Source of the DNA: Watersipora subatra
Lineage: Eukaryota > Bryozoa > Gymnolaemata > Cheilostomatida > Watersiporidae
Direction: 5' to 3'
Length of the DNA: 64,000 bases
Assembly (NCBI RefSeq): GCF_963576615.1
Contig: NC_088712.1
Coordinates: forward strand, 21,667,870-21,731,869
The position numbers and the translations under genes were made by a program. Positions 705-60,374 of this stretch are shown here, in pieces. The notes beneath the pieces are model-generated. The model saw only the letters and a list, made by a program, of their open reading frames with translations. It was not told the origin of the DNA and searched no databases. Positions within the stretch are counted from its first letter, which is position 1. Each line of letters starts with the position of its first letter.

Positions 705-744
705 CCAATGATATACAGCCCCCCATTGGGCTGTATATCATTGA
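705..744. mobile_element. 40-bp palindromic mini-element, CCAATGATATA family, copy 1
   Basis: The element starts CCAATGATATACAGCCC, ends with the inverted sequence GGGCTGTATATCATTGA, and is flanked on both sides by TTATA. It is almost all terminal inverted repeat. Confidence 0.75.
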
Positions 745-968
745 TTATACCATGTAACCTGGTATACCATAATATGAGGGTAATTGTGCACTCATGTATA
801 CATTCTGGTGAGTAATTTCTTAGGGAAAGATAGATGAGTAAATAGGGCACATTGGTTACTTTTGTTAAAGCTTTTGCTTGTAAGGAGTTTTATATTTCAG
901 AGGCCAAAATTACAACAATTCGTATTAGCTCTAATGGTATAACTGGATATCCGCCGCCAGTGCTTTAC

Positions 969-1253
969 CGGAAGTTGACCAATGAATCAACTTTCACTCT
1001 TCTACTCAGGGTAGAACGGCCTAGAATGAGAGAACGTAGCTCGGTTCCAAATTTATGTTAAGGGGTACTGTATAATCTATCTGCTTGATGAGAGAATGGG
1101 AGAGCTTACCGTTTGCGATGTATTACAGAACTTTAGCTAGAGCGATGAAGCAACTTGTGCCGTTTCCAATTAGACGAGCGCTCTCCCTAAGCGACGCTTC
1201 TAGATTACTGTTCTTATCCATGGCTCCTTTAACAGACATTCCTGCGCGACTAT
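969..1253 (-). pseudogene. Two exon-like blocks in frame with each other but with one internal TAA
   Basis: The minus-strand blocks are 1253-1110 (acceptor ttacttgcag, donor gtaagc) and 1020-969 (acceptor ctcattctag, donor gtaaag). The splice phases agree. The first reads as a hydrophilic, helix-like peptide containing NLEASLRESARLIGNG and then FIALAKVL, followed by TAA, then YIAN. The second continues with RSTLSRRVKVDSLVNF. I do not recognise the family. It could be a decayed gene copy or a mobile-element protein. Confidence 0.35.
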
Positions 1254-2200
1254 CTGCAAGTAAAGAGGGGTACATAATAGTTACATATTGTTGACTATTG
1301 TCATAAATGATGCTTTTTACTTGAGCATATAAAAAGTATAACTGACCGCATTTAGTCTAACTCAAAAACCGACAACAACATTCTTTTATATTATTTAGAG
1401 CTGCTTGAAAAAAGTCGTTGCTGCTCGAGCAACTTTTTAATATAGTTCAGACATTGATTTGATAATTTTTGTTCAATTATGTGTCAGCAATGTTATACCT
1501 TAAGATACTTAGCTGACTGTCACAAAGATCAATCTTTGGAGCAGTTGTCATCAACAAGATAGTATGAGTTTGATGTTGGTTTTATGGGTTATAGTCCGAG
1601 CCTCGACGGGTTTGAAGCTCGACGAGTTTGTATATCAACAACGGTTGGTCTAATCTCGACAGCGGTTGGTCCCAATTTTATTATAGAAATACACGTAATT
1701 GAATTTATTAATATTATAATTATTGTATTTTTGCATTATTATTTTATTTATGGAAATTTATAGTCTTACAGTCTGTAGTCTTATTATTTCCTTATGTTCA
1801 TTGATTTTCTCAATTTCTTCTCTTGAGCCGTTCATTTACAATTTTGGTATCACCAATATGATAATGATTATGCAAATCCATGCTATCAATTTAAAACTCG
1901 TTTAGTTTAGGCCTATATACATCATCAGATAACCACTGAAGGCTATTTCTAGTTTGTGGTTGTAAAATTTCTTCTATCACTGTGATTTTGGTGGTTTACA
2001 GTACAGCATAACTTGTCGATATTCAGACCAACCTTTGTCTAGATTCAAACCAACCTCTGTTGCGACTGTTTCCCTGGTTTTATCTGCACCAAGTGTTGAT
2101 ATGGTTGCTCAACAACCACTTTATAATTATTTGTAGTTTGGGATGAAATTTAATTTTTAGGGTTGTGTATAGGCTTGTCTAAGTTGTGGCTGTTACATTG

Positions 2201-3469
2201 CAGTAATACTTCAACTTACGAGTGCTCCAACGCACGAGAAACTTGAGATACGAGCCAGCTTTTAAGCAAGTTTTAGCACTAACATACGAGCCACGTTTGA
2301 GATACGAGCACGTGAGTCTGTTGCCACGTATGCCGGAGGTGTTTCATGAGAACAGCATCACTCTGTATTTTTCAACTGCTCAGGTTATACTTTTTGTATA
2401 ACCTGAGCAGTTTTGTATGCGCGACTTTCAGTGCAGAATTATGTGAATTAAAAGTACTGTGCGTAGACCGAAAGTTTGCCAGTAAAATGAAAGATAATGC
2501 AAAGAAAAAGCAAATAGTAACAATTATCAAACGGAAAATTATTGAAAAAATATGCGGAATGTGTATGCGTGATTGAGCTAGCTCAGCAATATGACTGAAA
2601 TACATCCACAATTATCAAACAGAAGGGTTATATTCAGGGCATTTATTTAGCTCGCAAAAGGACTAACCATAGTTTCTAAAAGGCGCAGCGATCTTCACGA
2701 CCGCTGATGGGGAGACTGCTCAGGCATTGGATAAAAGATCAACAATTGGCCGGTGACGGCGTAACTGAACGACGCTATGTGAAAAGGCTGGTACTATCTA
2801 TCAAAACTATAGACATTCGGACAAGTTGGCTAGTGGTCGTACATTTACCGTTTGTGACGACACATGTGTTCGTCCTAATCGCAACATGTTGAATGGGCGA
2901 CAAAGGCAAACGTCCTTAGATAGGCTTATTTTAAAACGGTCGGCTAGTCGTGAAAACGAAACAAAGGAAAAAATAGCTAACTAGCGAGAAACTTGAAACT
3001 ATGAACGCCAAAGAAATTTTAGTTACGTTAAGTTAAAAATGAAAGTTTGCTTTTAGGTTTGCTTGTAAGTTTGTCTTTTAAGACTTTGATAAAATCCAAA
3101 TTTATCAAAGTCAACTGTTGTAATGAAGGATAACTCTCTATAACTCCCTAGGATATATCCCTCTCTGGCAAATGCTAGCGTTAACTGCTATTGTATGTAT
3201 TTAATTTTACATTTTAATTAATCACATTTTCTTGCATTATTTTTATTTGTTGCTTTTTAAAAATTTGTGGTAAGTTAGGACAGTAACCAACATGTTCTTT
3301 CTGTTACAATATCTTGTTTTGAGCGTTTTATTTGCATTTTTAGAGTACGAAAACCAATCAATATATATTTAACGGTTCTATATATAAATAACTTGCACCA
3401 ACATGCGAGTAAATTGACATACGAGCTCAGTCTCGGAACGCATTAAGCTCGTAAGTCGAAGTATGACTG
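2201..3469 (+). mobile_element. Decayed Tigger/pogo-type DNA transposon with transposase remnant
   Basis: The inverted ends are CAGTAATACTTCAACTTACG and the complement of its partner at 3469. Inside lie broken reading frames with a CENP-B-type helix-turn-helix start (KKKQIVTIIKRKIIEKI near 2509) and WIKDQQLAGDGVTE (near 2727), typical of Tigger-like transposases. There are several stops and frameshifts, and no intact gene. The right flank is TA; the left is TG. Confidence 0.75.
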
Positions 3470-4289
3470 TATAGGCTTTTATGCCATTGTCTGCTTTTTA
3501 TGAAATATCTTCATTATCTGTTCGGGATTGAATTAAAAATTGATACAGTTATTTTGGTTTTTTACGCTTTATATCTGGATGATGAGGGATGCCCAATTTA
3601 AAACTCTTGGTGTCGTACATTTTCAGAGAGTGGCCTGTAAAAAACCACATATTGCTTGGTAAGTGGAGGGCTATTTTAAGCTTTCTTTTGGAGACTGGTT
3701 TGGTTTATATGAACTCAGTAGCTTTGATGTCTGACTTGCAATCAGTCAAATTTATAACAATGCCAAATAGTCTTGCAGTTCATTTGTAACTTTTATTAGA
3801 TATTTCTTTTTTAAACTATCACACAACTTCAAATTGAAATTACAGAAAACAGGAGCATTAAATATCTCACTGATGGTGAAGCATGACAATGAAGAACGCA
3901 TTAAGACAAGAATTATTGTACTAAGTAATTATTGTCTTAGTACTGAATTATGTACTAAGACCATATGGCAATTTATTTGTTTTTCTGCACCAGTTTTAAA
4001 GATGTCAGCCTTTTTCGAAAATATCTTTAGAGAATCTCTGAAATAAATTACATTTTTCATGTTTTAACAATTGTAATCAGTGATATCAGTGTAATCAGTG
4101 ACAAGCACATGTGAGTGTCATTTTTCATTATTCTCAATATCTGAATGATGACATTAGCGCTTAGTTTTTAAGCTGCTCAAAGGCACATGTGTAACATTAG
4201 CAGTATTGGACCATGAAAATTTCAATGTGAAACAGTACCTGAAAAGTAACATCAAGCCTGAAAAATTAAATTTTGGTGATTCTCAATAC

Positions 4290-13700: not shown

Positions 13701-16700
13701 AGTCATGACTTATTATATTGAGTCATGACTTATTATATTGAGTAATGACTTATTATGTTGAGTTATGACTTATTATTTTGAGTCATAACTTATTATATCG
13801 AGTCATGACTTATTATATTGAGTCATGACTTATTATATCGAGTCATGACTTATTATATTGAGTAATGCTTTATTATATTGAGTAATGACTTATTGCATTG
13901 AGACATCACTTGTTATATTGAGTCATCACTTGTTATATTGAGTAATGACTTATTATAGCAAATGATAATTTTTTTAGCAAGTGGTGGCTTGTTATTGCAA
14001 GTTACAATGTAGTTTTTGACACGCTGATTCTTTGCAGCAAGCTGCTGTCAATCTTTGACCCTTTTGCTGGTGGTAAAAAAGCAAGCTGGAAGAATTCAGA
14101 AGACGCCATTCACTCTGTACTCGGCTTTCTCAACAAGCAAACTTGCTCTCCTCCTGCAGATATCGAAAATGTTAAATCTCTAGTCCGTCAATTTTTAGAG
14201 GTACATGTCTTAAATCTGCTAAAACCTGATAATCGGTATTTACATGTATCTATAAGAAAGGGCATCCAGATACTATGTTATCAGGATATTATGTTATCAG
14301 GATATTATGTTATCAGGATACTATGTTATCAGGATACTATGTTATCAGGATACTATGTTATGAGGATACTATGTTATCAGGATACTATGTTATCAAGATA
14401 CTATGTTATCAAGATACTATGTTATCAGGATACTTTGCTATCAGGATACTATGTTATCAGGATACTATGTTATCAGGATACTATGTTGTTCCGATATTAT
14501 GTTGTCATCTGATTAATATATTAACTGAGGATCATGTTAATTGTATATTTTGGGATCTGGTTAAAGGTTGACTTGCAACAAAATTCACATTACAGTTATT
14601 TGGTATCATAAGATTCACCATGTCTTACTGTGTTGTGTTATAGGTGCCAAATATGTACACACATGATTACAAGCTCTTAAAAGCGAAAAGCCGCCATAGA
14701 TTAGGTAGCTCTTATTAGTAAGCTTACTCAAAGTATCCGTTGGCAGTGTGCTTGGCTAATAGCAAGTGGCAGGCAACTCTCATTACCTTTCATTATTCTC
14801 TCATTATTCTACAACTCTCATTATTTATAAGCTGATTTTTAATACCCAGGCAACTCGTAGTACAGCTAGTCTTTGTATGCTGTTGTGTGTACGTATTGCA
14901 GCTATCCCTTTGGGGAAATAAGTGTGACCTGAGTATTTCATCTGGTCAAGACAACTCACAGACATCCAACCCTCTAAAGCAAATCGGTCAACTTGATGAG
15001 TTTTTATTGGTGGATGATTATGAGTGTTTATGGAGTCAGCTGCTTCAGCTGCGTGAGAAACATGGAGGGTGCAACTCCGTAAGAATAGACATAATCCTGG
15101 ATAATGCAGGTAACTCATTGTGACATTTTTCCCAGACTGTCTAATTACCCAGATGTGAAATGCGGTTCTATACAAGCATGTTACCACTTCCTCCAAATAG
15201 CTGCGCCGGTTTCAACTCAAAATTTCTGGAGCACTATAATTTATGACATTGTTATGTTGGCTTATGTGGCAAAGTTTTATGCTGATTTACAGCTGAAGTT
15301 AGAAAGCTTATTCTTGAAAGCGTTTTTTCAACATTATTTAAAATGTTATGAGGAGTTTAATCGAAGTGCCAACACTTCTCAGTCAATATCTCTTAAAATA
15401 TGACAATCATCGTTTTCTATTACGTAACACCAACGTACTACATCCACCATGGTGTGTTTTAGTTTGTGAACTTTCTGTTACTACAACCTACAATATCCTT
15501 ACTCCTCCACAATACTGTTGGTTGATCAACTTTTAACACACTTTTGTTCAACCCAAGACCTGCTGATTTCTCTCTCTTTAATGTTTTCTTGTTTTTTGGC
15601 ATGTAACGAAGACATCATTTTGTTGATGGTTACTATTGCCAATAAAAAACTTATACATACAGTAATAGTACAACGTAAATAATCCATTCCAGGATTGCTT
15701 ACGTTATAAGGATTTTATGCTATAAGAACAGTAAAATACATGTTAATTGCTTAATTCGTTCCGAGATCATTCCAAACTCACCCCTTTGCCCATGTAACAA
15801 AAAAACTAGGACTTAGTCCAAATTAACTTTTTAATTTGTTGGTCGTATTGTGAATGTAATATTATTAGTTCGCATCGACAACTTGTCTCCTTTTTCTGCT
15901 CAATTTCACTGATTTTATAGATTCTGACCGGTAATTGACTTGACTAGATGTAATTTCACTATAAGTTGATGGGGAACACACATATTCGACGTCCGTTTAC
16001 AACAATATGTTTATTGTTCAAGACAACAAAGTCTATTTTGCAAAGTAAAGCTAATGACATGTATTTTATATGTCTACAATAAAGCTAATCCAACATTGTT
16101 TTTACTATAGAAAGAGTAGCGTCTACCTGTATGTCATCTGTCTGTATCCAGCAGTCAAGATTAAGAGAAAAGAGAGCTTTTGACGATAATCCAACTCGTA
16201 ACATTCAGATTGGTCGACTGTAACAAATCGATCTTCTTTAAGTATCTATGAACAATTGCGCAGCCACCTATTCTCTGTTTTGTCGACACATCTGACGATC
16301 TATCACCACGGACTATAATGTCATAGAAGTTGTATATATAATAGACTAGCCGTACTACCCAGCGTTGCCCGGGTAATAAAAAATTCTTTGGACAAAAAAT
16401 TGATTTGTATTTAACATATAACAACATTTGCCATTCTAACTTTCAAACTATATATCATGAGAAAAGTGTTTTGTGTAGTTGAAATAAATTAGGTGAAAAA
16501 TAAAACAACTGTAAAGCTTTGCCAATTTTGTCAAACAACTGTAACCTTCAAACTTTATATTACGAGGAAAAGGTTTTGTGAAGGACAAATAATTTAAAAA
16601 TAAATAAAACAACTGTAAAGGTTTTCAAACTATTGTAAATTTAAAATTTCATAACTTTCAGCGACGTATATCTTTTAATAACGTACAGTGGAACCTCGGT

Positions 16701-19700: not shown

Positions 19701-22700
19701 TTAGGCGTCATTATTATCTTCATCAGCGGCAAAATATTCTTGTTAACGACTTTTATAAAGGTTTGCAAAATATCAAGTTTTAGCAAACATCTGCTTGCCC
19801 ATATCCTACTTAATGAACTTGAAATAAAATCGGCAAAAATGATCTTTGTTAAAACGCTTAAAAAAAGATGTCTTCTTTCTGAGCTTTTTAACTGCATACA
19901 AGTTTTGCCTGTTTTAATTTTAAAACGTTTTGTCAGTCACATCAGCTAAAACAAAGCAAATCTCAAAAAATAGAAAAATGTTGATACTTGCCAATAAAAT
20001 TTTTTAAAACTTCACGTGAGAGGCCCGGCTGAGGCCCTACATAAGAGAAACCTGTTGGGAGCTTACAGCACCCCCCCCTTCTCCACACCCCAGATGTTCA
20101 TAACTAGTCGTCTAACATTAGCCCCCCAACTTGCAACCAGTGAATACAGGCTTGCGTAGAACATAGCTATTTAATTTCGAATTTTCGCTAGTTCGTAATG
20201 ATAGTTTAGTTTCGCGCATGAATTTTTCGCGTGATGATGACTCCGCGAAAACGCGAAAGTTAGATGCCGCGAATACTTAAGTGTCCTAGGGTACCACAGC
20301 TAGCTATGATGGATTACATAATTCATTATAACCAAGTTTTACTAAGCCAACAAGCCTTACTAACGGAAAAAGCCGATAATGTAAATTTTTTTATGATATT
20401 TGGAGCACCATCTACAAAAGGTCAGAGGTACATAGAACATGCTTAAGTATTAAGCTACCATAGACCCTATCTTCTGCCACCTGTTGACACGAAAATGCCC
20501 TGTAGCCCCAGACTATCTTGACTGTTTAACAATCCACCTGTTAACGCTGCGAGTACGAATGTCAGTCAATAAAAACTGAAAAATGATAAATAAATTGAAA
20601 AGAAATATAATTGCTTTGTAAATTTGAAGATATATCTGTTTAGAAAATTTAAACATAAAATCCATATCAATAAACCCGATACCCGAAAAACCCGTAGGCA
20701 AAGAAATATCCGAGCCTAGCACTACTAGCTACCCGATCCTCGAAAAACCCGAACAGAAGGGGACGGGTCTAAACCCGTTGACCAAGAAGTACTCGTGCCC
20801 AGCACTAGTCGAAACAGTCACATGTCGAAGCGTTCGCATGTCGAAACCTTCGTATGTCGAAACCTTCGTATGTCAAAACATTCGAATGTTAAAACCTTCA
20901 TAGGTCGAAACTTTAACTATGCTGGCTCGCTTACACAAGCATTTACATGGTCTAATATTGTAACTGTTATCTTGTTAACTGTTATCTTGTTAACTGTTAT
21001 CTTGTTAACTGTTATCTTGTTAACTGTTATTTTGTTAACTGTTATCTTGTTAACTGTTATCTTGTTAACTGTTATCTTGTTAACTGTTATCTTGTTAACT
21101 GTTATTTTGTTAACTGTTATCTTGTTAACTGTTACCTGGGTTCCTTGTTTCGATACAAGCGAGTAATCGCCTACTAGGTAGTTAGTTCTATAAGATTATA
21201 ACAAGACGCTGTGCTTATGATTGGTTTATCATATGAATTCCGATAGATCATTTGCTAAAATACTCATGTATATAAACTGCGTGGTAGCAAAGGAAATGAA
21301 CTTTGAAGTTTCATTTTACATTGTCTTTATGTCACGCAAATATGTGTTGTTATTTTATTTTTGTGTTTGACAGGCTTTGAGTTACTTAGTGACCTTTGCC
21401 TAGCTGAGGTCTTACTTACGGTTGGGATGGCTAGCCAGATCATGTTTCACATCAAGTCATATCCTTGGTTCGTCTCCGACACGACCGAGGATGATGTCAA
21501 GTATTGCTTAAGCAAGCTGCAGCAGTCTGATATGATGCTGGAGCGATGCCAGGGCAATGCTTGGGCAGCCCGTGTCAATGAAGGTAAGGCCACAGTCTAG
21601 TATGCTAGGGCCACTTCTGTGAATGAAGTTGGGAACACAGTCTAGTATGTTAGGGCAGTAGGTGGAAACACAGTCTAGTATGTTAGGGCAGTAGGTGAGA
21701 ACACAGTCTAGTACATGTATAATAGAACTGCCTGCATCAATGAAGGGAAACACCGTTTAGTGTTCTATACTCCCAAAAGCCATATTTTAACATCTTGTAA
21801 GTGGTTAATATAATAACTTTTTACTTCATTCCTCTGCAGGTATATTAGGCATATCGGTTTTATGAAGATTTTTATTGACAAATGTGAGATGTAATGAAGA
21901 GAGATCTGGTGATAGTGAACTGAAACGAAGGCGAGATTGAACAGAAGTATCAGTAGTGTACGGTATATTCACATCTGCTGGCCTGAAAATGCCTCCAGTC
22001 TGTAAATGCTTGCAACACAAACTGTAAAATACAGACATCTGTTAAAGATAAACTTACACAAAATTTTAGTAGATTTTATCAGAAAATATCGATATTTTTC
22101 AGTCATTTGCGATTGTCTTTGATATTTGGGTTAATCCGACTGCCAAGACTTTCAAAGGCTTAAATCAACAACAACTTCAGAGCAGTCAAAATACTCGTAA
22201 GGAAAAGATGCATGAAATAACGTCACTAGTTGCTATGGATGCTATAGTTGAAATCTGCTATTGTGTTGAAAATGAAGGGTTACACGGCTCCATTCTGTCT
22301 GTCTCTTTGGAACCATAAAGACATGAAAAGTGCACTATCTCTTTATTTGAATGTTTAGTCTATTTTAATTTTGAAATATCCCTGTCAGTCAGATTACCTC
22401 AAACATAAAAAATCACATATACTGATACTTTCTGATCAAATTTTTTTGATGTTTAAGATGATCTAATTGCAGGATGTGTCAAGATTAAAATCGACAAAAC
22501 TTGATCGCGGTTAAAATTTTCAGATCAAATTAAAGTTTGATCATAACATCTATAGTTTCAAAGAGACAGAATAGACACTCATAATGCTTCAACTTGAACA
22601 CAATAGCCGACATCAACGATAGCAACGACAACTAGTGATGTCATTTCGCACGTATTTTTTTTCTGAACAAAATCTATTCTCATATAGGTTCATTCGTCTT

Positions 22701-26600: not shown

Positions 26601-27667
26601 TAACAAATAATAGTCAACAACTATGTCATAGACTTTTGACCAAGTGTAAAACAGATAAGTGTAAGTCAATTTTGTTGGTAGAAATGACATGTTACTACAC
26701 GATTGGCTATGGTCATCATACAGCTATACATGTATTTATGTGTTTGTCTCAGAATCTTGATCTAATCAGACTCAACGCATTTGGATTTACTGGTTAGTTA
26801 CAACTTTTAAAATGGTTGTCACGGCAGCGAAGAATATGCTGTCATCAGTTTTTGATGTAATATTGACTACTGTCAAATGTCATTGGTTGATGCCGTATTT
26901 GGTTGTATTTATGGCACGCTAGACTTGTTCCTGCTCATTCTATTGACACCTTTTATATATCACAATACTCACTTCACGGCTTGCTGGTGCTTTTACAAAC
27001 CATATACACATATATGACAGCTATTGCACAACCATGTTATCTCACTCCATATGCTACCTTGCCCTTAATTCCCTCTGTGACCTTGATAATGTTTTTAAAA
27101 TGTGTTGATTGATAACACAACAAAGCATAACTACTTAAACCCAAGTTGTTCAAGTTGGTATTTGATGGTAAATGGCTAGAAATTTTGAAATTGCCAGATT
27201 TACTAGACAGGCCATCTATCAACTTATGACAATACCTAAAATTTTGGAATTCTGTACTACATCAATGAGGTTTTAGTAAGATCAAAAGCTTTTGGTTTTT
27301 GCTGGGAAACTCCACAGATGATCTAAAATGACTAAAATGCTTTTTGATAACCGCTTGCACTTGAACATCAGAACATCGGTTACTGCAGCTTTGAGCATGG
27401 CCATATTGCAATGAGTGAACCATGAATTTTTCACTCGAACTGTTTATCTATTCTTAAAATACTTATACGTGGTTGTCTTCTCTAGCAAAATATGAAAAGT
27501 TATGCCTGGGCGAGTCATCCGTTCCAAAGATTCTTTGCTTTTCTAGTTTCTGTGTGATATGGACGGGGAGCATGTCATACCCTTCGTAACATCGTGTCAC
27601 TTGTTCGAGAATAGCGTAGTGTACATTATTTAAAAACCGGATATGCTATTAGCATGCCACGAAAAAG
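26601..27667 (+). other. ARMT1-SLC35E1 intergenic region
   Basis: Contains the presumed SLC35E1 promoter. I see no clear TATA box and no repeat I can name. Confidence 0.4.
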
Positions 27668-28007
27668 ATGAGCGGCTCAGCCGACGAGTTTACCAAAAGG
27701 GATGCCGTTAAGGTGGCTTTACTGTGTATTACGTGGTATACATTTTCTTCAAGTGCTAACATTATAGTAAAAACTTTACTGATAGATTTTCCGTATCCTA
27801 TGACGGTAACCATGGTACAACTATTAAGCATATGGGTTTATATTCAACCAGTCATGAGGTACTGCGGAACGCCTCAGGTCGATAGAATGAAAACGCCATG
27901 GAGTTATTACTTTACAATGATATTTCCTTTGGCTTTTGGAAAGTTTATTACTTCAGTTTCAGCTCACATCAGTCTTTGGCGAACAACCGTGTCTTATGCT
28001 CATACTG
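27668..28007 (+). CDS. SLC35E1: SLC35E1 exon 1
   Basis: The exon encodes residues 1-113, starting [12 protein letters not shown], with the first membrane helices and the AFGK and VSAHISLW motifs. The donor is gtaagt after CATACTG. Confidence 0.96.
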
Positions 28008-31000
28008 GTAAGTAAAACCAGCGTCGGATCTGTTGTGCCTAGATAAACCTTACAAGTACCATAATAAGCCTCTTTTCTGGTGTAATAACGTCATTTTTGG
28101 GAATTATAATTAAAACTAATCAAGTTTTTGTAATACACGCGTTTTTTAATACATAGCCTTAATAATTTGGGCTATGAGTGTGTTAGATGACTCAATGCAA
28201 TAGAAAAAGAGACCAGCACGAATTATTATCCTGAATTTTCATCACTAATAGCCCTGAACACGGCGTGGTAAGAGGTGTAGCCTACGAAGTTAACTGTAAC
28301 TGGAGAGTTTAAGATTTCTAGATACAAATTGTCGAAAAGCATTTCGTATTAATCAAAAAGAAAGGCCTTTCCGTCTATTGTATCTATAAACATATTTATT
28401 GGTCAAAGCAAAATCTCTACTAAAGGACGTTTCGTAGCTTGACCAGTATTGGCCAATATTTTGATCAGTACTGGCCACCTTTTGGTTTCATATCTAGACC
28501 TGTTTGCTTTCTGTGGTTACGACATAACCCACAACTCGTCTCACTCAGTTTTATTTGCTAGCTAAAATCAATAAATGACAAGTGTTTTGTTTTCGTTTGT
28601 TGTTTAATTTGGAGTTACAATGTATCACCAATGATATACAGCCCCCATGGGGGGGGGGGGGCCTGTATACAGCCCCCCCAGGGGGGGGGGCTGTATATCA
28701 TTGGTATCACCTAAAGAATAGGACAACTTTTGTTTCTAGCAATTCAAGTTTTGTTTTTGTATGGTGACATAGTTTTCGGTCTGCGCTGATATAAATAAAT
28801 CTTTCTATTTACGTTCTTGAAACATTTATTCTGAGCGAAACAAAACTAAAACAAGCATACAACACCCACCTCTTCTGACTCCCACACCTGGTGGTCTTAG
28901 CTTAGCCTCTTTGGTGGTCAAATTTGAACAGACAAACATTGTGTTCGTGGTTTTCATTCTTTTTTTTGTGCTTTCTTTTTTCGTGTGTACTTTTCTATTT
29001 GTTATGTAGTGATATAATTCTAACATGTATTTGCTACAGGTTTTAACCATTATATGTATTGAGAATTTTTACAAATGTTGATGTCCGAGTTTGTTGGGAT
29101 TTGGAAAGGATTAGGGCACTTGTATGGTAAAATGTTTTTTCCTGTAGGAAATTTTCTACTGATGAACGAATTAATTTTGGAACGAATTAATTTTGTTAGT
29201 AGAGGTTCCTCTGCTGTACTTTTTTATAGTTATAGCTGGACCTGATTGTCTGGGAAGTTGAAGGGAGTGTAGTACCATTATTTTGAAAAATTGTCCAAAA
29301 CTAACCTAATGTAACCTTTCGAGATTTGTATACCTCAGCCAAAGGGGCTGAAGTTTGTAAGAAACAGCCATACCGGCCAGAAAATTATGATGAGAACTAC
29401 AAAAGTTCATATTCTTTCACATATATTCTATCGTACTATTTAATTTGTTGTATTCTGAATCACAATTGAATCGGTTCACAACTGAACAAATAAAATTTAA
29501 ATGCCACCTCTAATAAACAATCACTAGAGAAGAATGGTTGAAAAATACAACGTAACCCTTTAATTGAACGTCACCTGTATTTGCTCGCCACTTTGACATT
29601 CTTTGATATTTATGAATCCATAATAAAAAGGAATCAGTAGAAAAATGTCCACAAAATGGTACTAATAAAGACTTGATTATGTCAATAACAAATAATTATC
29701 CTGTTGTTGCTGTAGTGGTTGCCATGGTTTTAGTAACAATGTACCGGACAAGGTCGATTGTCACAATCATCAGAACTACACTCTGATTTTAAGTCCTTAA
29801 GGTATAAATCCGGTCCATTGTCTTCAGATTTGTCCATAATGTGGTTTACCTTGGTTATTATAGTGCCATTATAGTGGTTATTATAGTGCCAAACAGTGTA
29901 TATCATGACAATATGGGAGCAGAATTTTCAATTACAATTTTTATTCAGGTAAAAGAGACAAAAAGTCATACATGCGAAATCTGGTTTGAGTTTGGATTGT
30001 TGGTCGGACCCCCCACACAGAGAAGAAAAGTTCTGAGACCATAAATGCACCAGTTAGGTTTCAAGGATTAGCCATACAAAATTTCAAGTCAATATCTTTA
30101 AAATTGACAAAATGACAGCGTTTTAAAGATTGAAAACACTGACAAAAAGTAAATAATGAGAAAATACTGCCTAAAGTTTGGGAATAGAAAACGAATGATT
30201 TCTTTATAGTTATAGGCAGCTGGATTGTCTCATACACTTTTGAAACCCTCCACCTGAATATGTATTGCTAAAACCCTCCACTTGAACATGTATTATCATA
30301 TGGTGCAGCTGACCTTCTGTTTGTTTTCCTAGCAGCAATTACCACTGGTTCAGCTGCCTTGTTTCCACGTACCACCCGGCAGCGATCAATATCTCAGGCA
30401 TATTGTCTCTGGACGTAGCCAACATTCAGTCCAAATTATGAGTGTTTTAAAGTGGTTTGACATACATTTTAGTGGCAGCAATGGAAAGAGTACACTTGAA
30501 TTTTATAGGAAACATGTCTTTTTGAAAATAATTTAAAAAAATACAATTTTGAGGGTGCCTTCTAACTTTAAGGACGAATCTGAAGACAAGGGATCTGATT
30601 TAGATGTGCGTGATTTCGAATCAGAGGGTGTGTAATTCTGACAATTGTGACGATCGCATCTTCTTAGGTACACCGTCACTAAAATCATGGCAACCCCAGT
30701 ACAGCAGCAACGAAAGAATTAATTATTATTGATGTAACGGAGTCATTATTAGTAAGTAACATTTTGTGGACACTTTTCTACTGATCGCTCTCTATTATGG
30801 GTTTGTTTAGATAAATTAATATCAAAGTGACGTGAAAATAGAGGCGACATTCAATTAGAGGTCACGTTCAAATAGAGGTTGTACGGCAATTGTGTGAGGT
30901 TGTCAGTCGAGTTTTTACTTTTTTTTAACGACTGGTTTGTAACCTCAGTGATAATTTGTTAAGTAGTTTTTTCATTTCTGTTTGTGATTATGTTTACTTA

Positions 31001-37000: not shown

Positions 37001-40000
37001 GGTGACGTTTAATTAGAGGTTGTACGGTATTTCCTCTGCATTCACCTTCATCATGGGCACTGTTACACCCTGATTATATATACACTGTCATTTTTCTGAC
37101 GCATATCTTGCCCATGTTTGAAGTTTCACATGTTGTACTTTTGGAAGTTAATTCATTTTGCTAACATATTTCATTTAGCTTTTTTTACTTGCACCGGCTT
37201 AACTTTATTTTCTCGGCCAATATGGCATATCAGATTTGTACCACAATTAGAAATGAAATGTTAAACAAAGATTAAATACAAACGTAACCAAATAGGTATG
37301 TGTTTAAAGTTTTTAATAGATTTTGGCAGAAATTATTGATATCTTTTTATCATTTGCGATTGTTTTATGTTCGAGGTGATCTGACTGCCCAAATGTTTCA
37401 AGACTAAAATTGAGAAAACTTGTTCGTACTAAGACCTTCAGAAGAAATATATGTGCCAAAATGATGTCACTAGTTGCTATTCTTGCTATAGTTAATATTG
37501 TTTATTGTGTTTAAGTTGCAGCGTTACACGTCTCTTTTCTGTCGGTTTATTTGCATAATTACACTTTCACTTGATCTGAGCATTTTAACCCTGATCAAGT
37601 TTTGTCGATTTTAATCATGAAACATTCTGGCAGTCAGATCCCCTCAAACATCAACAACAAACGCAAATGATAAAAATGTCGATACTTTCTGATAAAATCT
37701 AAGTATAGCTTTGTGTAAAATAATCTTTAAAGGTTGACCTGCAACAAAATTCACATTACAGTTATTTGATATCAAAAGATTCACTATGTCTTACTCTGTT
37801 GTGTTGTAGGTGCAAAATATGTGGAAATGTGATTACAGGCTCTTAAAAGCTCAAAAATGAACAGCTAATTGCCGCCATAACAAAACCGCCATAGATTAGA
37901 ATCTCTTTTCAAAACGGCTCAAATGTGTCGTAGTTGTGGGAGATGGTTTCTGTTTACACTTTCACGCAACCTCATTCGTCAAAACATTTTCACAAATATA
38001 CTTCATGCATTCAATAAAACTATGTCTATTGTTCTTACGCGTCTATTTTATCGTCATCGTAATGCTGTCACTTTTAGCACTGATATCTTATAACTTATAA
38101 CTTTCTTTAAAGGTTAGCTGTTCGTTTTTAGCTTTTAAGAGCCTGAAATCACATCTCCACATATTTTGCACCTACAACACAACGAAGTAAGACATGGTGA
38201 ATCTTTTGATACCAAATAACTGTAATGTGAATGTGAAATGGCTAAATATATCCTCAAAGCATCTCATTTTTTTCTTTTACTTGTAGATGAAGGGTGATAA
38301 GGTAATTCGATGTATCGTCTTGCTAATTGCCGATGCTTTCGCTAACTTTACCATAAACGTAGTCGCCTTTACCCTCCTATCACTTGTCACGCCCCTCAGC
38401 TATGCAGTGGCCAATGCTACAAAACGTATAGTTATCATCAGCTCTTCGCTCATCCTCCTCCGTAATCCAGTCACCACGGCTAATGTTGGAGGGATGCTAC
38501 TTGCAGTGCTCGGAGTCCTCATGTACAATAAGGTACGTCTCCTCACCCTTCCTTACCGTCGTGTTTATAGCACTATTTGGGACTACATAGTTCTGTTTTT
38601 ACTCATACTGTTTTTGGTGATCAAAAATCTTTTAAAATACTACTAAGTGAACCGGTAAGCATTTTAACTATGCTTCCAGTGTTGATTTGATAGATAGCTC
38701 TATGATTGCCATTTGCTTAAAGGTGACATGAAGTTGAAATGAAACAGTAAAGTAGCGAGCATCTATATTTGATAAGGGCTTTCCGGTGGAACCTGAAGTG
38801 TTTGTCATACTAGTGCTGCGAGACATTTTATATTGAGCCTTTTATTGGCATTTTATTTCACGTGATGTTATCACGTGTCAAAACAATAACCACAATGTTC
38901 CACAATGAGTACGTCATCAAAAGAAAGCGATTTCAAACCATGGCACTTTGGTGATGGCTGTGATTAACTGTTGGTTTTTGAGCTTTTAAGAGCTTGTAAT
39001 CACACTGAGTTGAATACGTCATCAAAATAAGGGATTTCAGTCTACAGCCGCTTTTTTACCTGTTCGTATTTGAGCTTTTAAGAGCTTGTAATCACATTTC
39101 TACATATTTTGAACCTATAACACCGCAGAGTGAGACATGGTGAATCTTTTGATACCAAATAACTGTAAGGTAAGTTTTGTTGCAAGTCAACCTTTAAGTA
39201 ATAAAAATATACCATGCAAAGGTTAAATGTAGTAAGGTCAGTATTGTTTAGGTCAGCGCTAGTAGCCCTGGAGAAATGATTGAGCAGAGCCCGAGCCCTG
39301 ACCTGAGCCTGCTAGGATACAGGCGTTAGATTGGTACCATTCTGCCAGTTATTTTCCCCAAGAAAAATTAGGCCAGCCCTTTTAGTTCTTGTTGGACACC
39401 AGGTGCACCACAAAATTGATTAGCAAGCCATGTTCATCAAACCTGCCGAGTTAGTGCTTGACATGCTCTCCAGCGCCATGCAGGGTCAGATGAAAGATAG
39501 CAGCAAATGTAGCCTACAACTGCCGCCCTGCGGCATGATCCCTGCGGTGAAATTTGTTGCAAGTCAACTTTTAAGAAGCATTGGATAAGAAGAGTTGAAT
39601 TTCGCATTCTCCATGCGTAGGACGCGTTTGAGTTCATGAGTATATGTTATATGATGTAATATGTTTGGTTCCAATTGCGTATCCTTCAGTTTGCCTTATA
39701 GTACACGAAGACACACAGTAACCGATTCAATAAATTGTTTGATTGGTATAATCTTTATACATTTGGCGCTCCTACAACGTAAACACTCTGTTTCAGGAAG
39801 ATTTACGTTACGGGATTTTATGTTATACGGGCAATGAAAAAAAGAAAGAAAAAAAGACTAGGCTAATTTTTTTAATTTCATTACTGCATCGTAATTGTAG
39901 TATTATTGGTTTGTATGGACAACTTTTATCCTCTTTTTATCGCTTTCACTCGGTTCAAGGTCTCGATTGCGGTAATTTTACGATGAGGTAAGGAGAACAC

Positions 40001-41313
40001 AAGCCTTCAATGTCAATTTATCACGACTGTTGTTTTTATTCTAGACAGCAAGGCCTATTTTTTAAAAAGGAAACCAATAAAAATGTTTTATATATCTAAA
40101 ATATAACAAAAATACAGCTTTACAATAAGATCGTTGTGTATCTGTTCATTGGCCTATCTAATAAAAAGGGTAGAGATTATAATACAAGATAGCTTTCGAC
40201 AATACTCCAACTCGTGACACTCAGACTGGTAGACCGACACTGTAACACATACACCGACACTGTAACACATACACCGACACTGTAACACATACACCGACAC
40301 TGTAACACATACACCGACACTGTAACACATACACCGACACTGTAACACATACACCGACACTGTAACACATACACCGACACTGTAACGCATACACCGACAC
40401 TGTAACGCATACACCGACACTGTAACACATACACCGACACTGTAACACATACACCGACACTGTAACACATACACCGACACTGTAACACATACACCGACAC
40501 TGTAACACATACACCGACACTGTAACACATACACCGACACTGTAACGCATACACCGACGCTGTAACACATACACCGACACTGTAACACATACACCGACAC
40601 TGTAACGCATACACCAATACTGTAACGCATACACCGACACTGTAACGCCTACACCGACGCTGTAACACATACACCGAATAATTGAGCAGCTACTTTAGTT
40701 ATTCTCTGCGCTTTATCGACACATTTAGCAATTTCCCACAGTAAAATAGACTGCCCCCAGTATTAGTATATATAATAGAGTACCCTATACATAGTTTTCT
40801 TTTCCAAAAGTGACGAGAGAGGAAGTGATTTTTCTAAGGCAAACCACGAGAATTGTTGAAGAATTGAAGAATTTAACATAGGCTTTACTATTACTACAGC
40901 TTCAGTGTCAAACTATTGCTTGTTGGTACATGTTTATATCCAACACAGCTAACCCTACTGATAGAATAGTAATATGACTCCTGCTGACACATGCTAACAG
41001 GTGTCATTAACCTGCATTGACAACCATTAGTATAAAACCATTTGCAAATAGCGTAGACCATTTTTTGATTAGTCTAGGAATATTTTTTTAATATCTCCCT
41101 TTTTAATTACAGGCTAAATATGATCAGGCAAAATTGAAGAGACAGCAGCTCCTACCGCTGGTGAGGAGTGAGCCTAATATCTTTCATAGGAATCTCCACC
41201 TCTCACCACTTCACAGAACCAACACAGAGTTTGACCTCCAAAACCATGTCAGTCTGCTTCCTACCAGTGATGCATATTTGAATGGTATAGCTCCTGTTGA
41301 TGGCTACAGGTAG
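27668..41313 (+). CDS. SLC35E1: SLC35E1, nucleotide-sugar/triose-phosphate translocator family protein (complete, six exons)
   Basis: This gene encodes a multi-pass membrane transporter of the drug/metabolite-transporter superfamily (TPT/EamA type), expected in Golgi or ER membranes. The substrate of SLC35E1 is not established. Exons: 27668-28007, 31664-31734, 31826-31963, 35053-35178, 38287-38532 and 41113-41313. All splice sites are GT-AG and in phase, giving 373 residues against about 410 in human. Diagnostic stretches are [18 protein letters not shown] and SYAHT (exon 1), VKATMP (exon 2), [13 protein letters not shown] (exon 3), IHHLRMLL (exon 4) and [13 protein letters not shown] with [10 protein letters not shown] (exon 5). 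The C-terminal tail is hydrophilic, as in the family. Membrane segments fill exons 1 to 5. The start ATG at 27668 has a purine-rich context (aaaaagATGa). Confidence 0.96.
28628..28704. mobile_element. 77-bp palindromic mini-element, copy 2 (G-run loop)
   Basis: The element has the same CCAATGATATACAGCC termini and is flanked on both sides by TATCA. The interior holds runs of 14 and 10 G. It sits in SLC35E1 intron 1. Confidence 0.8.
29546..30892. mobile_element. TIR element, TACCGTAAAACCTYTAATTG family, copy 1
   Basis: It begins TACAACGTAACCCTTTAATTG and ends with the inverse CAAATAGAGGTTGTACGG. It is 1.35 kb, in SLC35E1 intron 1. There is no intact ORF. Confidence 0.65.
31664..31734 (+). CDS. 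SLC35E1: SLC35E1 exon 2
   Basis: The acceptor is ccccttgcag and the donor gtaagt. The exon encodes [18 protein letters not shown], the conserved TPT segment after SYAHTV. Confidence 0.95.
31826..31963 (+). CDS. SLC35E1: SLC35E1 exon 3
   Basis: The acceptor is tttgttgcag and the donor gtatga. The 46 codons contain [16 protein letters not shown] and NIFTKK. Confidence 0.95.
32927..33772. mobile_element. TIR element, CAGTAAGGGCTCCTATAACC family
   Basis: The left end is CAGTAAGGGCTCCTATAACC and the right end is GACATAGTATGAGCAACTAC-TG. A tRNA-like module (GGCGATCGATTGGTGCAAG, GAGTTGGAGTATCG) lies near 33265-33330. It is in SLC35E1 intron 3. Confidence 0.65.
34044..34464 (+). mobile_element. MITE, CCTAGGACACTTATATTTCGC family
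   Basis: The termini are ACCTTAGGACCCTTATATTT and the inverted AATACATAGGTGTCCTAGGGT. It is about 420 bp and carries no insertion. Confidence 0.75.
34551..34962 (-). mobile_element. Non-autonomous Helitron, 412 bp, with tRNA-like module
   Basis: The minus strand starts TCTATATATAAATCTCAGTG after an A. It ends with a hairpin around CCCGGGCATT and CTAG before a T. A tRNA-like segment (GATGTAGTGGTTTAGATTAC, then GAGATCAAATCC) is antisense to the element. Confidence 0.8.
35053..35178 (+). CDS. SLC35E1: SLC35E1 exon 4
   Basis: The acceptor is tatttgtag and the donor gtaagt. The 42 codons include [11 protein letters not shown] and a membrane helix. Confidence 0.95.
35255..35400 (+). repeat. Pyrimidine-rich simple repeat
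   Basis: Runs of TCTCTATCTATATC and CTTTCTC on the coding strand of SLC35E1 intron 4. Confidence 0.85.
35551..37029. mobile_element. TIR element, TACCGTAAAACC family, copy 2
   Basis: It begins TACCGTAAAACCTTTAATTG and ends AATTAGAGGTTGTACGGTA. It is 1.48 kb. A 17-bp subterminal repeat (GTTCAAATAGAGGTGGC) occurs about six times at 35606-35705. Confidence 0.75.
37303..37716. mobile_element. Foldback MITE (best copy of the family at 6070)
   Basis: The left arm is TTTAATAGATTTTGGCAGAA and ATCATTTGCGATTGTTTTAT. The right arm is its inverse, ending GATACTTTCTGATAAAATC. Confidence 0.75.
37729..38243. mobile_element. Foldback MITE, AAAGGTTGACCTGCAACA family, full copy
   Basis: The left arm has TTCACATTACAGTTATTTGA and the right arm its inverse, CAAATAACTGTAATGTGAA. 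Both contain the AGCTCTTAAAAGC-type motif. It ends 43 bp before SLC35E1 exon 5. Confidence 0.75.
38287..38532 (+). CDS. SLC35E1: SLC35E1 exon 5
   Basis: The acceptor is acttgtag and the donor gtacgt. The 82 codons cover the most conserved C-terminal half, with [12 protein letters not shown] and [13 protein letters not shown]. Confidence 0.96.
38925..39197 (-). mobile_element. Half foldback MITE, same family
   Basis: GAGCTTTTAAGAGCTTGTAATCACA appears twice. The segment ends TTTTGTTGCAAGTCAACCTTT. Confidence 0.65.
39765..40770. mobile_element. TIR element of the CAGTAAGGGCTCC family carrying a minisatellite
   Basis: It contains GGCGCTCCTACAACGTAAAC and GGGATTTTATGTTATACGGG, as in the copies at 15.7 and 32.9 kb. 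An expanded 20-bp array fills 40237-40676. Confidence 0.55.
40237..40676 (-). repeat. 20-bp minisatellite, about 22 units
   Basis: The unit on the minus strand is TGTGTTACAGTGTCGGTGTA and is highly homogeneous. All three minus frames are open because 20-bp units without stops cycle through them. It is not a gene. Confidence 0.97.
41113..41313 (+). CDS. SLC35E1: SLC35E1 terminal exon 6
   Basis: The acceptor is taattacag. The exon encodes the cytosolic tail from [15 protein letters not shown] to TAG at 41311-41313. Confidence 0.93.
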   Translation, partial: AKYDQAKLKRQQLLPLVRSEPNIFHRNLHLSPLHRTNTEFDLQNHVSLLPTSDAYLNGIAPVDGYR

Positions 41314-56346: not shown

Positions 56347-56371
56347 TATATAAGTATTTGTATTCATTTCA

Positions 56372-56746
56372 TCTATATATATATTTTTCAAAGTATGTCC
56401 TTGTGTCGTATGTCTGTCTGCATTCCGGCTATAGCTATTATAAGAATAACTGCTGCTGAACAACAATGCTGACGCAATGTCATGAAGTAACATCATTAGA
56501 AGCCTAGCGGCTTGCTGGAATTTTCCATTGGCAATGTGCCAGGCTAACAGCTTGAAAGTTACAGTTGTTTGACAAAGTTTTAAAACTTTCACACTTGTTT
56601 TCATTTTCTCTTAATTTTTTTCAACTACACAAAACACTTCTCTCAGGATATGTAGTTAGAATGGTAAATGTTGTTATATGTTAAATACAAATCAACTTTC
56701 TGTCGAGACTTTTTTATTACCCGGGCAACGCCTGGTAGCACCGCTA
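56372..56746 (+). mobile_element. Non-autonomous Helitron, 375 bp
   Basis: It starts TCTATATATATATTTTTC after A. It ends with hairpin ACCCGGGCAACGCCTGGT and CTAG before T. No tRNA-like module is apparent. Confidence 0.75.
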
Positions 56747-57590: not shown

Positions 57591-58097
57591 CATCTAGCAA
57601 TACAGTGGCTTAGATTGATGAATATACTAAAGGTAATATTTTTAGTACTCATTAATACATGTACTAATTAATAAAATTATAACTTTTTGCTATCACCAAT
57701 CATCGTTTTATAATTTTTTATCGTTTTACTGAGCTATATTTGCTTCAATTTTCTGTGGCAGTTTTATTTAGTAAATTAGATTTATGATTGGACTTTAGCT
57801 GTTCACTTCTCATTTGTAGAAAGCGAAGAAAGTCGATTGATCAATGCAAATCTTCAACTTCCAGAACCAAAGCTTCGAATCGTTGGCTTGGCATACTTAT
57901 GCTTTTATTAAACATTTATTCATTTTTAAAATTACTCGCAATCTATCCAACTCCCAATTTGAAAGCTTTCAGTAGATACGCATTAGAATGACATATCTAT
58001 GAATGACATATATTTATTGCATTTGTTTTACTGATTACAGGATGTTTATGTGGTCCCACCAGCCAAAGCAGCTTTGTCAGTGTGGAAACTGCCATAA
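57591..58097 (+). other. Unidentified exon-like segments (possible 3' end of a gene)
   Basis: Three open, splice-flanked segments are visible. The first is 57591-57632, with acceptor taatccatag and donor gtaata (HLAIQWLRLMNILK). The second starts at 57820 after catttgtag (SEESRLINANLQLPEPK in one frame). The third is 58041-58097, after ctgattacag (DVYVVPPAKAALSVWKLP, then TAA). The first and third share phase 0. No protein family is recognised, and no upstream exon is certain. Confidence 0.25.
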
Positions 58098-58329
58098 ATG
58101 GGAAAGAGAGACTTGAATGTGCACCGCATAAACCATGATGTTTTGTTTGAATTTGCTGCTGCAGATGAATTTGTCTTTTTGTAGGAGCTGAAACTATGTG
58201 AGGGGCCACGACTTGATGGATATTCTTAATAAAAGCTTTATGCCAAGATGGAATTTTTTTGCTTGTAAAAATTGTATAATAAAATAATATTGTTGAAGAT
58301 AATGCAAAACATGATTTGCAGACTATTGT

Positions 58330-58410
58330 AGTGAATTGGATACGGTATATGGATGTCCGCAAAACTGGAAAATGTGAGTTCAAATCCAGTTTGCAGCAGA
58401 TTTCTCATCA
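58330..58410 (+). repeat. tRNA-like SINE fragment
   Basis: GTAGTGAATTGGATACGG is followed by GTGAGTTCAAATCC, an A/B-box pair, shortly before mini-element copy 3. Confidence 0.45.
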
Positions 58411-58496
58411 TTATAACTCTATCCCTATGTATATTCTTTTCAAAGACAAGCTTGCTCATTTTTCTTACGGTAGTAAGAAACTAGTTTTCGGTGTGG

Positions 58497-58574
58497 GCAA
58501 TGATATACAGCTCCACCCCAGGATAGGCAACGGGCATAATGTGGGCGGAGCTTTTGGAGGCTGTATATCGTTAG
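58497..58574. mobile_element. 78-bp palindromic mini-element, copy 3
   Basis: The termini are GCAATGATATACAGC and the inverted CTGTATATCGTTAG. It is flanked on both sides by TGTGG. Confidence 0.75.
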
Positions 58575-58889
58575 TGTGGGTAGCGACGGGACTGTGACGA
58601 TACAAAGACCTTATTCTACATAGTTTGCTTGACAGAATTACCGTAGGCCAGTAGAATTGGTAGTCGGTACTAAGATGTTTACACAGCATTTAGAAGAAGG
58701 TAATATGACAAGTTTTTAATTTTCCTTGTTTGAGGCCTTTGAGACATTGGTAATAATGTATCTGTAGCTGGATTTAAAATTTTATTCTAGTCAACACGAG
58801 CAAATACCAGATAAAATATATGCCAATAGAGCCGCGTAGGACTAGACTTTTATCGCAATAGCCGATGTGAATATGAGAGATAGATACAG

Positions 58890-59070
58890 GTTGTATCACG
58901 CGTGACATCATTTTGGACAAGTCTGGGCATGTTTTTTTTGGCCTGAGCGTTTTTACCGTGGTCGAATTTTTTTGATTTTAATCTTCAAATATCTTGACAA
59001 TGAGATCGCCTAACTCAACAAACAACATATCAACTGATAGAAAAAGAAAAATACTTTTAAAATCAACTCA
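58890..59070. mobile_element. Half copy of the foldback MITE family at 6070
   Basis: GAGCGTTTTTACCGTGGTCG, GATTTTAATC and GATCGCCTAACTCAACAAAC match the right arms of the other copies. Confidence 0.5.
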
Positions 59071-60306
59071 AATTTGATGCAACCACATTTTAAAATCAAT
59101 TCTTTGGTATCTTTTACTTGCAGTAGTATTGAAATGACTTCGCGCATTCTACTAGGAAGAATTGAATCGATTCTTTACTGTCATCATAGATTAATTTACC
59201 CGATTTTCCATTTTTCAATAAGCAAAAAGGCTTCAGTCACTGCCTCTCTTTATTATTACTATCTCAGTATCTCTATGATAAGTAATTTACATTGTATAAC
59301 TGTGTTGGCTTAAAATTAATCATTGACAGTGATATACTATTAAAGCAATTAGTTAATCATAAGTGCAGCTCAGTAATTTCAGCCGCGCTTAACGTTTTTA
59401 TAAACCTTGATATCACCGCATATATGTTATTTGTCAATACATTATTATGTAGTATTATTATTTATGAACCACATAATGATATAGTATAGTTCTATAGTTT
59501 GCCTGGGCACTGACAAAAAGTTTAGCTACGCTGGATTATATGTAAGCTAGCGTGTTTATGGTGGTTGCTTTCGGTGCCGTAACTGTTAGCTATGTGTAGC
59601 GTTGTGTTGACTAATCTGATGTGATATCACTCGAGTGGTAATTAGTTTCTATAAAGGAGAAATGTCATGCTCTGGTGCGGTTCAATCCGCATTTTGGATA
59701 AACTGTAGAAAACCATTTGATTATATGACTGAAAACTTTTACATAGGACCCTGTCTAAAGTGTTGGAGTAAACACAAGAGGCGGATGCCCAAGGAATTAA
59801 ATTAAGGAGATTCGATGCACTTTGCCTGCAACCAGTGCCCTTGTGGGGCACATATTTAATCATGGGGCATCATCATGCACCCCAATAAATCGATAATGAC
59901 CCACCAAAAAGTAATCAATAAGTATGTTGACAAACTTCCTATAATAAATGTTAAAATGAACCTCCAACAATCAATAATTATTTTATTTCCAAGCTTGTTT
60001 TGCATAGGAGTTACCCAACACTTGTGTGGGTGCACAACTTCTATTTTGAGCAAAGGCTTGCTGGTAGACCAGTAGCAAATTAATAAAGAATTGATTTTGT
60101 CTAAAGAACTAAATTGAATAAAACTATTGAAAGTTAGGATAGCTAAAAACTTAAGAATTAAATTGTCAAGTTTTGCTTATTGAATTAAAATGAATCAATT
60201 CTAGCCTGGTCTATGATGCAAAATAATGGAGAATTGAATTGCTAATTTTTGGATGATTATTTTTTAAAGCCCTAAAAACGTTTCTGCTGTATCCTTATTT
60301 GTACGA
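59071..60306. other. Non-coding stretch
   Basis: AT-rich. No feature I can support. Confidence 0.4.
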
Positions 60307-60374
60307 GCAATGATATAAACCCTCATAAATACATGAAACCCCCACATAAATAAATGAAGGGTTTATATCATTGG
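60307..60374. mobile_element. 68-bp palindromic mini-element, copy 4
   Basis: The termini are GCAATGATATAAACCC and GGGTTTATATCATTGG. The flanks are TACGA and TACAA, four of five identical. Confidence 0.7.

What the first reader, a model, noticed from the sequence alone, without database searches (positions are those of the whole stretch)
705..60374. A family of 40-78 bp near-palindromic insertions with 5-bp target duplications
Four copies (705-744, 28628-28704, 58497-58574, 60307-60374) share the terminus (C/G)CAATGATATA and its inverse. Each is bordered by a different direct repeat of 5 bases: TTATA, TATCA, TGTGG and TACGA/TACAA. The duplications show these are insertions and not just local palindromes. 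At 40 bp the smallest copy is little more than two inverted ends, close to the limit for anything a transposase could move. I do not know a named superfamily with this terminus; a 5-bp duplication is compatible with Transib-like or other enzymes.
Basis: partly seen in the sequence, partly recalled or inferred. Interest (0 to 1): 0.88.

Follow-up and report, generated by a model that had tools for sequence, protein, structure and literature searches.

The report
Scars left by departing P-type transposons
The tiny palindromes are most likely not miniature jumping genes but repair scars: when a cut-and-paste transposon left, the cell rejoined its two stubs, so this genome keeps a large natural record of how broken DNA was mended.

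Summary
The element proper is CAATGATATA...TATATCATTG. Places with exact 10-base ends number 269 (20-34 bp), 1418 (35-65 bp) and 109 (66-96 bp) genome-wide.

Short copies do not behave as mobile units. Of 107 counted with a duplication, 99 are different sequences. At 57 sites the arms match the ends of an ~815-bp transposon with the same ends and duplication, and 66 of 114 arms stop at base 18-20; 1 reads two or more bases beyond the stop, although the donor's repeat runs ~75 bp. Twelve of 28 long fillers hold copies of the arm (shuffles 0.07). This is the published structure of Drosophila P-element excision junctions: duplication, 17-nt stub, templated filler, stub, duplication.

A family with P-type transposase kin in this genome leaves similar palindromes (29 places). 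The target motif resembles Galileo's. Against: the transposase for CAATGATATA was not found, and three identical pairs lie at different sites. Window copy 3 is carried inside a larger repeat. Verdict: excision scars of a P-like transposon.

The parts
699..705 (.). left copy of 7-bp target duplication ATTATAC
706..743 (.). 38-bp scar: 20-nt left arm joined to 18-nt right arm, no filler
744..750 (.). right copy of 7-bp target duplication ATTATAC
28622..28628 (.). left copy of 7-bp target duplication GTATCAC
28629..28703 (.). 75-bp scar with a ~35-nt filler that contains a 13-nt copy of the arm (TATACAGCCCCCC); between two TPT-family exon-like ORFs, so probably intronic
28704..28710 (.). right copy of 7-bp target duplication GTATCAC
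58420..59100 (.). interspersed repeat, parts of which are shared with L049, L054, L056, L059, L060, L061, L082; it carries copy 3
58498..58573 (.). 76-bp copy that reads past base 20 into the donor's end (blast match to base 27; to ~50 in relatives L049 and L061), duplication GTGTGGG at 58491-58497 and 58574-58580; taken as an internally deleted copy duplicated together with its host repeat
60301..60307 (.). left copy of 7-bp target duplication GTACGAG
60308..60373 (.). 66-bp copy of the AAACCC end type (CAATGATATAAACCC...GGGTTTATATCATTG); not part of the arm count
60374..60380 (.). right copy of 7-bp target duplication GTACAAG (1 mismatch)

Best explanation
The short palindromes are excision scars of a P-superfamily-like DNA transposon with ends CAATGATATACAGCC(C)nA. 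Shown: 7-bp duplications at a palindromic target motif; intact ~815-bp non-autonomous copies with the same ends and the same kind of duplication; short copies made of two end arms that stop at 18-20 nt or earlier; fillers that often copy the arms; interiors nearly always particular to a site. Inferred: the transposase cuts one strand at the transposon boundary and the other about 19-20 nt inside, so each donor flank keeps a single-stranded stub of the end. The two stubs are then joined with microhomology, trimming or templated insertion, as in polymerase-theta end joining. Some scars were later multiplied inside other repeats. The family's own transposase was not found.
For: Duplications: of 55 elements listed, 45 have GTNNNAC on both sides and 41 of 45 agree at the three free bases (shuffled partners 4.6%). 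Genome-wide this pattern gave 142 forward and 152 reverse hits, 0 for the reversed pattern. Donors: six 776-817-bp elements with the same ends and perfect 7-bp duplications. Arms: 57 sites, 114 arms; 50 end at the A after the C-run, 34 in the run, 14 before it, 15 one base past, 1 two or more past. Fillers: 12 of 28 of 8 nt or more contain an arm copy of 8 nt or more; shuffle mean 0.07, maximum 2. Uniqueness: 107 copies, 99 distinct. Published match: 17-nt 3' tails and the Table 1 junctions of P excision (PMC2895639). In-genome control: the repeat family whose right end L087 shares (L087 encodes P-type HTH, RNase H and GTP-binding domains; seven complete copies with perfect 8-bp duplications) has ends that also occur as short palindromes at 29 places, reversed control 0.
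Against: No transposase was found between CAATGATATA ends: three P-type transposons that I delimited and the L087 family have other ends and 8-bp duplications. Arms are 18-20 nt, not the 17 nt of Drosophila P. The 14 identical pairs fall into five groups: one group of five copies and one pair where the flanks that I fetched are duplicates, but three pairs at different sites, as mobile copies would be (two CCCAAAT junctions, one CCCCCAGGGGG junction whose duplications happen to be complements; flanks unrelated where fetched). In the control family the stop is less sharp: of 32 arms, 13 are at 13-14 nt (the pattern asked for 13), 7 at 18-20, 5 at 21-22 (some by chance overlap) and 1 at 33, and duplications there could not be read. 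Six exact-ended copies in fetched loci have no duplication (two in L003, two in L071, and L013 and L080, which lie in the host repeat). No site was seen with the intact element in one copy and a scar in another. Sixteen of 28 long fillers show no arm copy by my rule. Samples come from the first listed places (mostly chromosomes C1-C3) and were selected for exact 10-nt ends.
Confidence: 0.8

Rival explanations
1. Tiny non-autonomous transposons (micro-MITEs) of 30-78 bp that a transposase moves from site to site.
For: Most copies have their own target duplication; three identical pairs lie at different sites; copy number is high.
Against: 99 of 107 copies are distinct; the largest identical group (five copies, three with flanks fetched) and one pair are flank duplicates. 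30-31-bp copies with perfect duplications exist (L053, L055), too short to keep two separate ~20-nt ends.
Confidence: 0.07
2. In-place shrinkage: an inserted ~815-bp element with ~75-bp inverted ends lost its middle by replication slippage or hairpin removal, without a transposase.
For: Same ends and kind of duplication as the 815-bp donor; long inverted repeats are unstable (general knowledge); copy 3's family (67-78 bp) reads deeper into the donor end.
Against: Deletion points would scatter over the 75-bp repeat; 1 of 114 arms reads two or more bases past the A. Arm-copying fillers are not expected from slippage.
Confidence: 0.05
3. Excision scars, but of a transposon outside the P superfamily whose enzyme also cuts far inside its ends.
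For: No P-type transposase was found with these ends; the 7-bp duplication differs from the 8 bp of the four P-type families examined here.
Against: CA...TG termini, 7-bp duplication and a GTNNNAC core within a ~15-bp palindromic motif match Galileo of the P superfamily (PMC4168063 passages). The genome is rich in P-type transposases (175 matches), and one such family leaves similar palindromes.
Confidence: 0.1

Closest known systems
End-joining products after Drosophila P-element excision (Chan et al. 2010, PMC2895639; passages and section 7 with Table 1 seen)
   Same: Duplicated target on both sides, stub of the terminal repeat from each end, short microhomology or templated filler between them.
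   Different: There 17-nt tails, 8-bp duplication, laboratory-induced at one site; here 18-20-nt arms, 7-bp duplication, well over a thousand natural places in one genome.
Galileo, P superfamily of Drosophila (PMC4168063; passages seen)
   Same: 7-bp duplication with palindromic consensus GTANTAC, target motif of 15 bp.
   Different: Galileo is classified by its transposase sequence and has long terminal repeats; the transposase for the present ends is not known. The end sequences themselves were not compared.
P-MITEs of Anopheles gambiae (PMC1562414; passages seen)
   Same: Non-autonomous relatives with P-like ends, like the ~815-bp donor here.
   Different: 8-bp duplications, interior shared within a family; not scars.
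Excision footprints compared between two rice genomes (PMC4423477; passages seen)
   Same: Genome-scale list of repair outcomes with fillers.
   Different: 94 putative excisions found by comparing two genomes; no fixed ~20-nt stubs described in the passages seen.

Membership tests
P superfamily of DNA transposons | CA...TG terminal dinucleotides | tested here: met
   ends CAATGATATA...TATATCATTG; four P-type families of this genome also begin CA. That this defines the superfamily is my reading of these and of the published Drosophila and zebrafish ends
P superfamily of DNA transposons | 8-bp (P) or 7-bp (Galileo) target duplication at a palindromic motif | tested here: met
   7 bp; 33 of 41 sites (35 short copies, 6 donors) NTNNNAN against 4.3 expected; GTNNNAC
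P superfamily of DNA transposons | excision leaves a long stub of each end (17 nt in Drosophila P) | tested here: met
   arms stop at 18-20 nt: same kind of stub, slightly longer; strand and cut not tested biochemically
P superfamily of DNA transposons | THAP / RNase H / GTP-binding-domain transposase encoded between these ends | tested here: inconclusive
   175 matches to PF21787 in the genome; the four loci fetched have other ends; the remaining matches were not examined for ends
Mobile MITE family (short copies) | copies at different target sites share their interior | tested here: not met
   99 distinct of 107; of five identical groups two are flank duplicates where fetched, three are pairs with simple joins at different sites
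MITE family (the ~815-bp donor) | short inverted-repeat element without coding frame, interior shared between copies at different sites | tested here: met
   five copies 85-92% identical to L045 over the aligned stretch, longest open stretch under 70 codons in the three translated, different 7-bp duplications
Transib / RAG-like | 5-bp target duplication (recalled) | tested here: not met
   duplication is 7 bp
hAT | 8-bp target duplication; excision leaves only a few bases (recalled) | tested here: not met
   7 bp and ~20-nt stubs

The most novel reading that the evidence does not exclude
This genome is a germline archive of probably over a thousand independent excision events of one P-type transposon lineage with a 7-bp duplication, each preserved as a readable double-strand-break repair junction rich in polymerase-theta-like templated insertions. 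Some micro-MITE families reported elsewhere may be the same kind of scar.
Probability: 0.55. Interest if true: 0.72.

Novelty: new variant of a known kind. Interest (0 to 1): 0.62.

Why it matters
It turns a puzzle (can anything move a 30-40-bp element?) into a readable record: each scar marks a past excision and shows how the germline mended it. With so many sites one can measure the cut position, trimming, microhomology and templated synthesis in a natural genome, and estimate how often a transposon left rather than arrived. It also warns that small palindromic repeats with target duplications may be annotated as miniature transposons when they are scars.

Tried and rejected
5-bp duplication and Transib reading: rejected, the duplication is 7 bp. 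Reading the outer base as a random added nucleotide: considered, then explained by the 7-bp duplication. Longer elements from unpaired ends in the first ~270 kb: nothing convincing. The 1.6-3.2-kb repeat around several copies is a host, not the source: it has 8-bp duplications and P-type kin of its own. Unpaired ends L050, L051, L057 and L063 gave no partner in the ~1.2 kb fetched; L057 is a further copy of the 815-bp element whose other end was not recognised. Remnant coding in the 815-bp element: of two segments tried in Pfam one gave MEKHLA at E 0.031, below its cut-off, the other nothing. Autonomous partner: four P-type loci tested, with other ends; L087's left end lies outside the stretch fetched. 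CCCAAAA-type ends (126) gave two facing pairs among the 100 listed, again 815 bp apart. L045's duplication GTGACAC is the complement of that of scars L089-L092, but no flank match was found. A first filler count without tolerance for arm mismatches (33 fillers, 14 with p of 0.01 or less) was replaced, because arms with one mismatch had been counted as filler. Paper searches for the end sequence and for AGAGTTATCTCCC listed nothing relevant by title. Searches touching scars of this kind: (listings, plus passages of the papers named); I saw no natural genome-scale set of P-type scars there, but most subscription papers are not held. A bivalve transposon survey has no P-element terms in its text (PMC10294476). 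The organism was not identified.

Rows dropped before counts: host-repeat copies; nine alternative or doubtful pairings; copies without a duplication within 2 (rarely 3) mismatches (the six exact-ended ones are named under evidence against); nine sites with other end types from the arm count; places that by their interior looked like host copies were mostly not fetched, and one of these (C1:15343774), which one search shows to have another duplication, stayed out through a coordinate rule. The elements of 66-96 bp listed were not put into the arm count. On re-checking, the statement '12 of 14 identical pairs share the duplication' was replaced by the count by groups, and confidence lowered from 0.82 to 0.80.
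Full report
Setting. The window is C5:21667870-21731869 of an assembly of 784 Mb in 239 contigs. Among the 21 contigs whose length I saw, eleven are of chromosome size, 46-79 Mb. The organism was not identified; exon-like matches in the window (TPT transporter) point to a eukaryote with introns.

Observation. Copies 1 and 4 match an exact paired-end pattern; 100 shuffles of the window give none. Genome-wide, places with exact 10-base ends number 269 at 20-34 bp, 1418 at 35-65 bp and 109 at 66-96 bp; the reversed patterns give 8, 6 and 2. The counts include copies multiplied inside other repeats and sub-matches nested in longer scars, so independent events are fewer.

The duplication is 7 bp. 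In a host repeat the same site occurs with and without the palindrome. Seven empty copies carry the site once (GAGTAAC in five, one-base to two-base variants in the others); of eight occupied copies, seven carry it on both sides within one mismatch and L013 has lost the right side. L069 and L018 show the same with GTGAGAC. Of 48 early pairings with at most one end mismatch, 35 agree in at least 6 of 7 bases. In the later table of 57 copies from fetched loci, which was filtered for a duplication, 35 are perfect, 15 have one mismatch and 7 two; six exact-ended copies have none. In the sample, 45 of 55 listed elements carry GTNNNAC on both sides and 41 of these 45 agree in all three free bases, against 4.6% for shuffled partners. 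Around 41 sites (35 short copies and 6 donors) the motif is palindromic and reaches 4 bases beyond the duplication; 33 of 41 fit NTNNNAN, 4.3 expected.

Long relatives. Exact CAATGATATACAGC ends number 2791 + 2839. Some lie about 815 bp apart facing each other. Six fetched copies are 776-817 bp, five with exact ends on both sides and one with a single end mismatch, all with perfect 7-bp duplications: GTGACAC, GTTTTAA, GTGACAT, GTATAAG, AATACAC, CTTAAAG. Five are 85-92% identical to the sixth (L045) over the aligned parts. They have inverted ends of about 75 bp (CAATGATATACAGCCCCCCAAGGATAGGCGACGG...) and no long frame in the three translated. A search with that end had 2307 first-look candidates, of which 40 were scored.

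Short copies are made at each site. I counted 107 short copies with a duplication. They are 99 different sequences. Fourteen pairs are identical, and they fall into five groups. One group of five copies (GTTCAAC; flanks of three fetched) and one pair (GTATTAC) are duplicates of one site with nearly identical flanks. Three pairs lie at different sites: two CCCAAAT junctions with different duplications, and one CCCCCAGGGGG junction (L099, L100) whose duplications are near-complements but whose flanks do not match. Since selected GTNNNAC, 747 of 5671 pairs share a duplication within one mismatch on either strand anyway, so the weight lies on the 99 distinct interiors, not on the shared duplications.

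Arms and fillers. After removing copies with the same duplication and similar interior, 66 sites remain of 89, 57 of them with CAG-type ends. Sites were separated by duplication alone, without flanks. The 114 arms follow the donor end and stop: 50 at the A that follows the C-run, 34 in the run, 14 before it, 15 one base beyond, 1 two or more beyond. Without tolerance for mismatches, 66 of 114 arms are 18-20 nt and 1 is longer. The sampled length range (mostly up to 65 bp) would have allowed longer arms. Of 28 fillers of at least 8 nt, 12 contain a copy of at least 8 nt of the arm in either direction; shuffled fillers give 0.07 on average and at most 2. Window copy 2 is one of the twelve.

Mechanism. 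In Drosophila, P transposase leaves 17-nt 3' tails of the terminal repeat on each donor flank, and end joining yields duplication, stub, microhomology or templated insertion, stub, duplication (PMC2895639; the 17-nt staggered cut also in PMC7776569 passages). The present copies have the same architecture, with stubs of 18-20 nt. That templated fillers point to polymerase theta is inference from that paper. That the cut is staggered and leaves 3' tails is inferred by analogy.

Which transposon. The genome holds 175 matches to the P-type RNase H domain PF21787, 150 of 342 candidates scored. I delimited three such transposons: 4.2 kb (duplication ATAAAGTG, ends CATAGACC), 5.5 kb (GACTATTA, CAGTGTCG) and 4.9 kb (GAGATGGG, CAGAGCCA). 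A fourth, L087, shares its right end with the host repeat, of which seven complete copies (1.6-3.2 kb) have perfect 8-bp duplications; L087's left end was not fetched. None of the four has CAATGATATA ends. The host family is nevertheless a useful control: its ends also occur as short palindromes, 29 places against 0 for the reversed pattern. In the 16 whose letters were shown, 31 of 32 arms are at most 22 nt, including chance overlap, and one reaches 33; but 13 of 32 stop at 13-14 nt, the minimum that the pattern asked for, so the stop is less sharp than in the CAATGATATA family. Their duplications could not be read. A negative control with a non-P transposon was not run. CA...TG ends, a 7-bp duplication and a GTNNNAC core in a ~15-bp palindromic target motif are close to Galileo of the P superfamily (GTANTAC, 15-bp motif; PMC4168063 passages). 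I therefore call the family P-like by working, and leave membership open until its transposase is found.

The window copies. Copies 1 and 2 are scars of the CAG type: a direct join, and a join with templated filler. Copy 4 has ends of a second type (AAACCC) and a one-base difference between its duplications; it was not in the arm count. Copy 3 reads past base 20 into the donor end and lies in a repeat shared in part by seven fetched loci with GTGTGGG-like duplications. It looks like an internally deleted copy that was multiplied with its host.

Limits. Lists show only the first places, so samples lean to chromosomes C1-C3. Patterns required exact ends, which favours young copies. No site was seen both intact and scarred. 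The autonomous partner is missing.

Noticed in passing
G000:C3:2908609-2908805: Head-to-tail array of a ~51-bp unit made of one scar plus its 7-bp duplication (GTTGAAG): a scar apparently turning into a satellite repeat.
   Followed up: no
L006, L010, L011, L012, L013, L016, L017: 1.6-3.2-kb non-autonomous family (ends CATAGAGTTATCTCCCCCTAGAGTGATAACT, perfect 8-bp duplications, internal repeats) that carries scars at fixed places; its P-type transposase kin is L087.
   Followed up: partly
L001:1468, L016:6094, L068, and many places: A 76-78-bp scar (duplication ATGGAAA) with several direct copies of the arm in its filler, multiplied with its host repeat.
   Followed up: partly
L003:1501-1675: Two exact-ended palindromes close together with extra TATATCATTG copies and no simple duplication, suggesting repeated breakage or joining at one place.
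   Followed up: no
G000:C8:8.0-18.2 Mb: Cluster of mostly broken P-type transposase fragments on chromosome C8.
   Followed up: no
window 27653-28015 and 38287-38646, + strand: Two exon-like ORFs of a TPT-family transporter, matching the start and end of the domain; scar copy 2 lies between them.
   Followed up: partly
window 26052-26450, + strand: Exon-like ORF matching the end of the ARMT1-like damage-control phosphatase domain (E 1.9e-8).
   Followed up: no
window 40154-40694, 14233-14571, 20729-21166: Long open frames made of short repeated peptides, so tandem DNA repeats.
   Followed up: no
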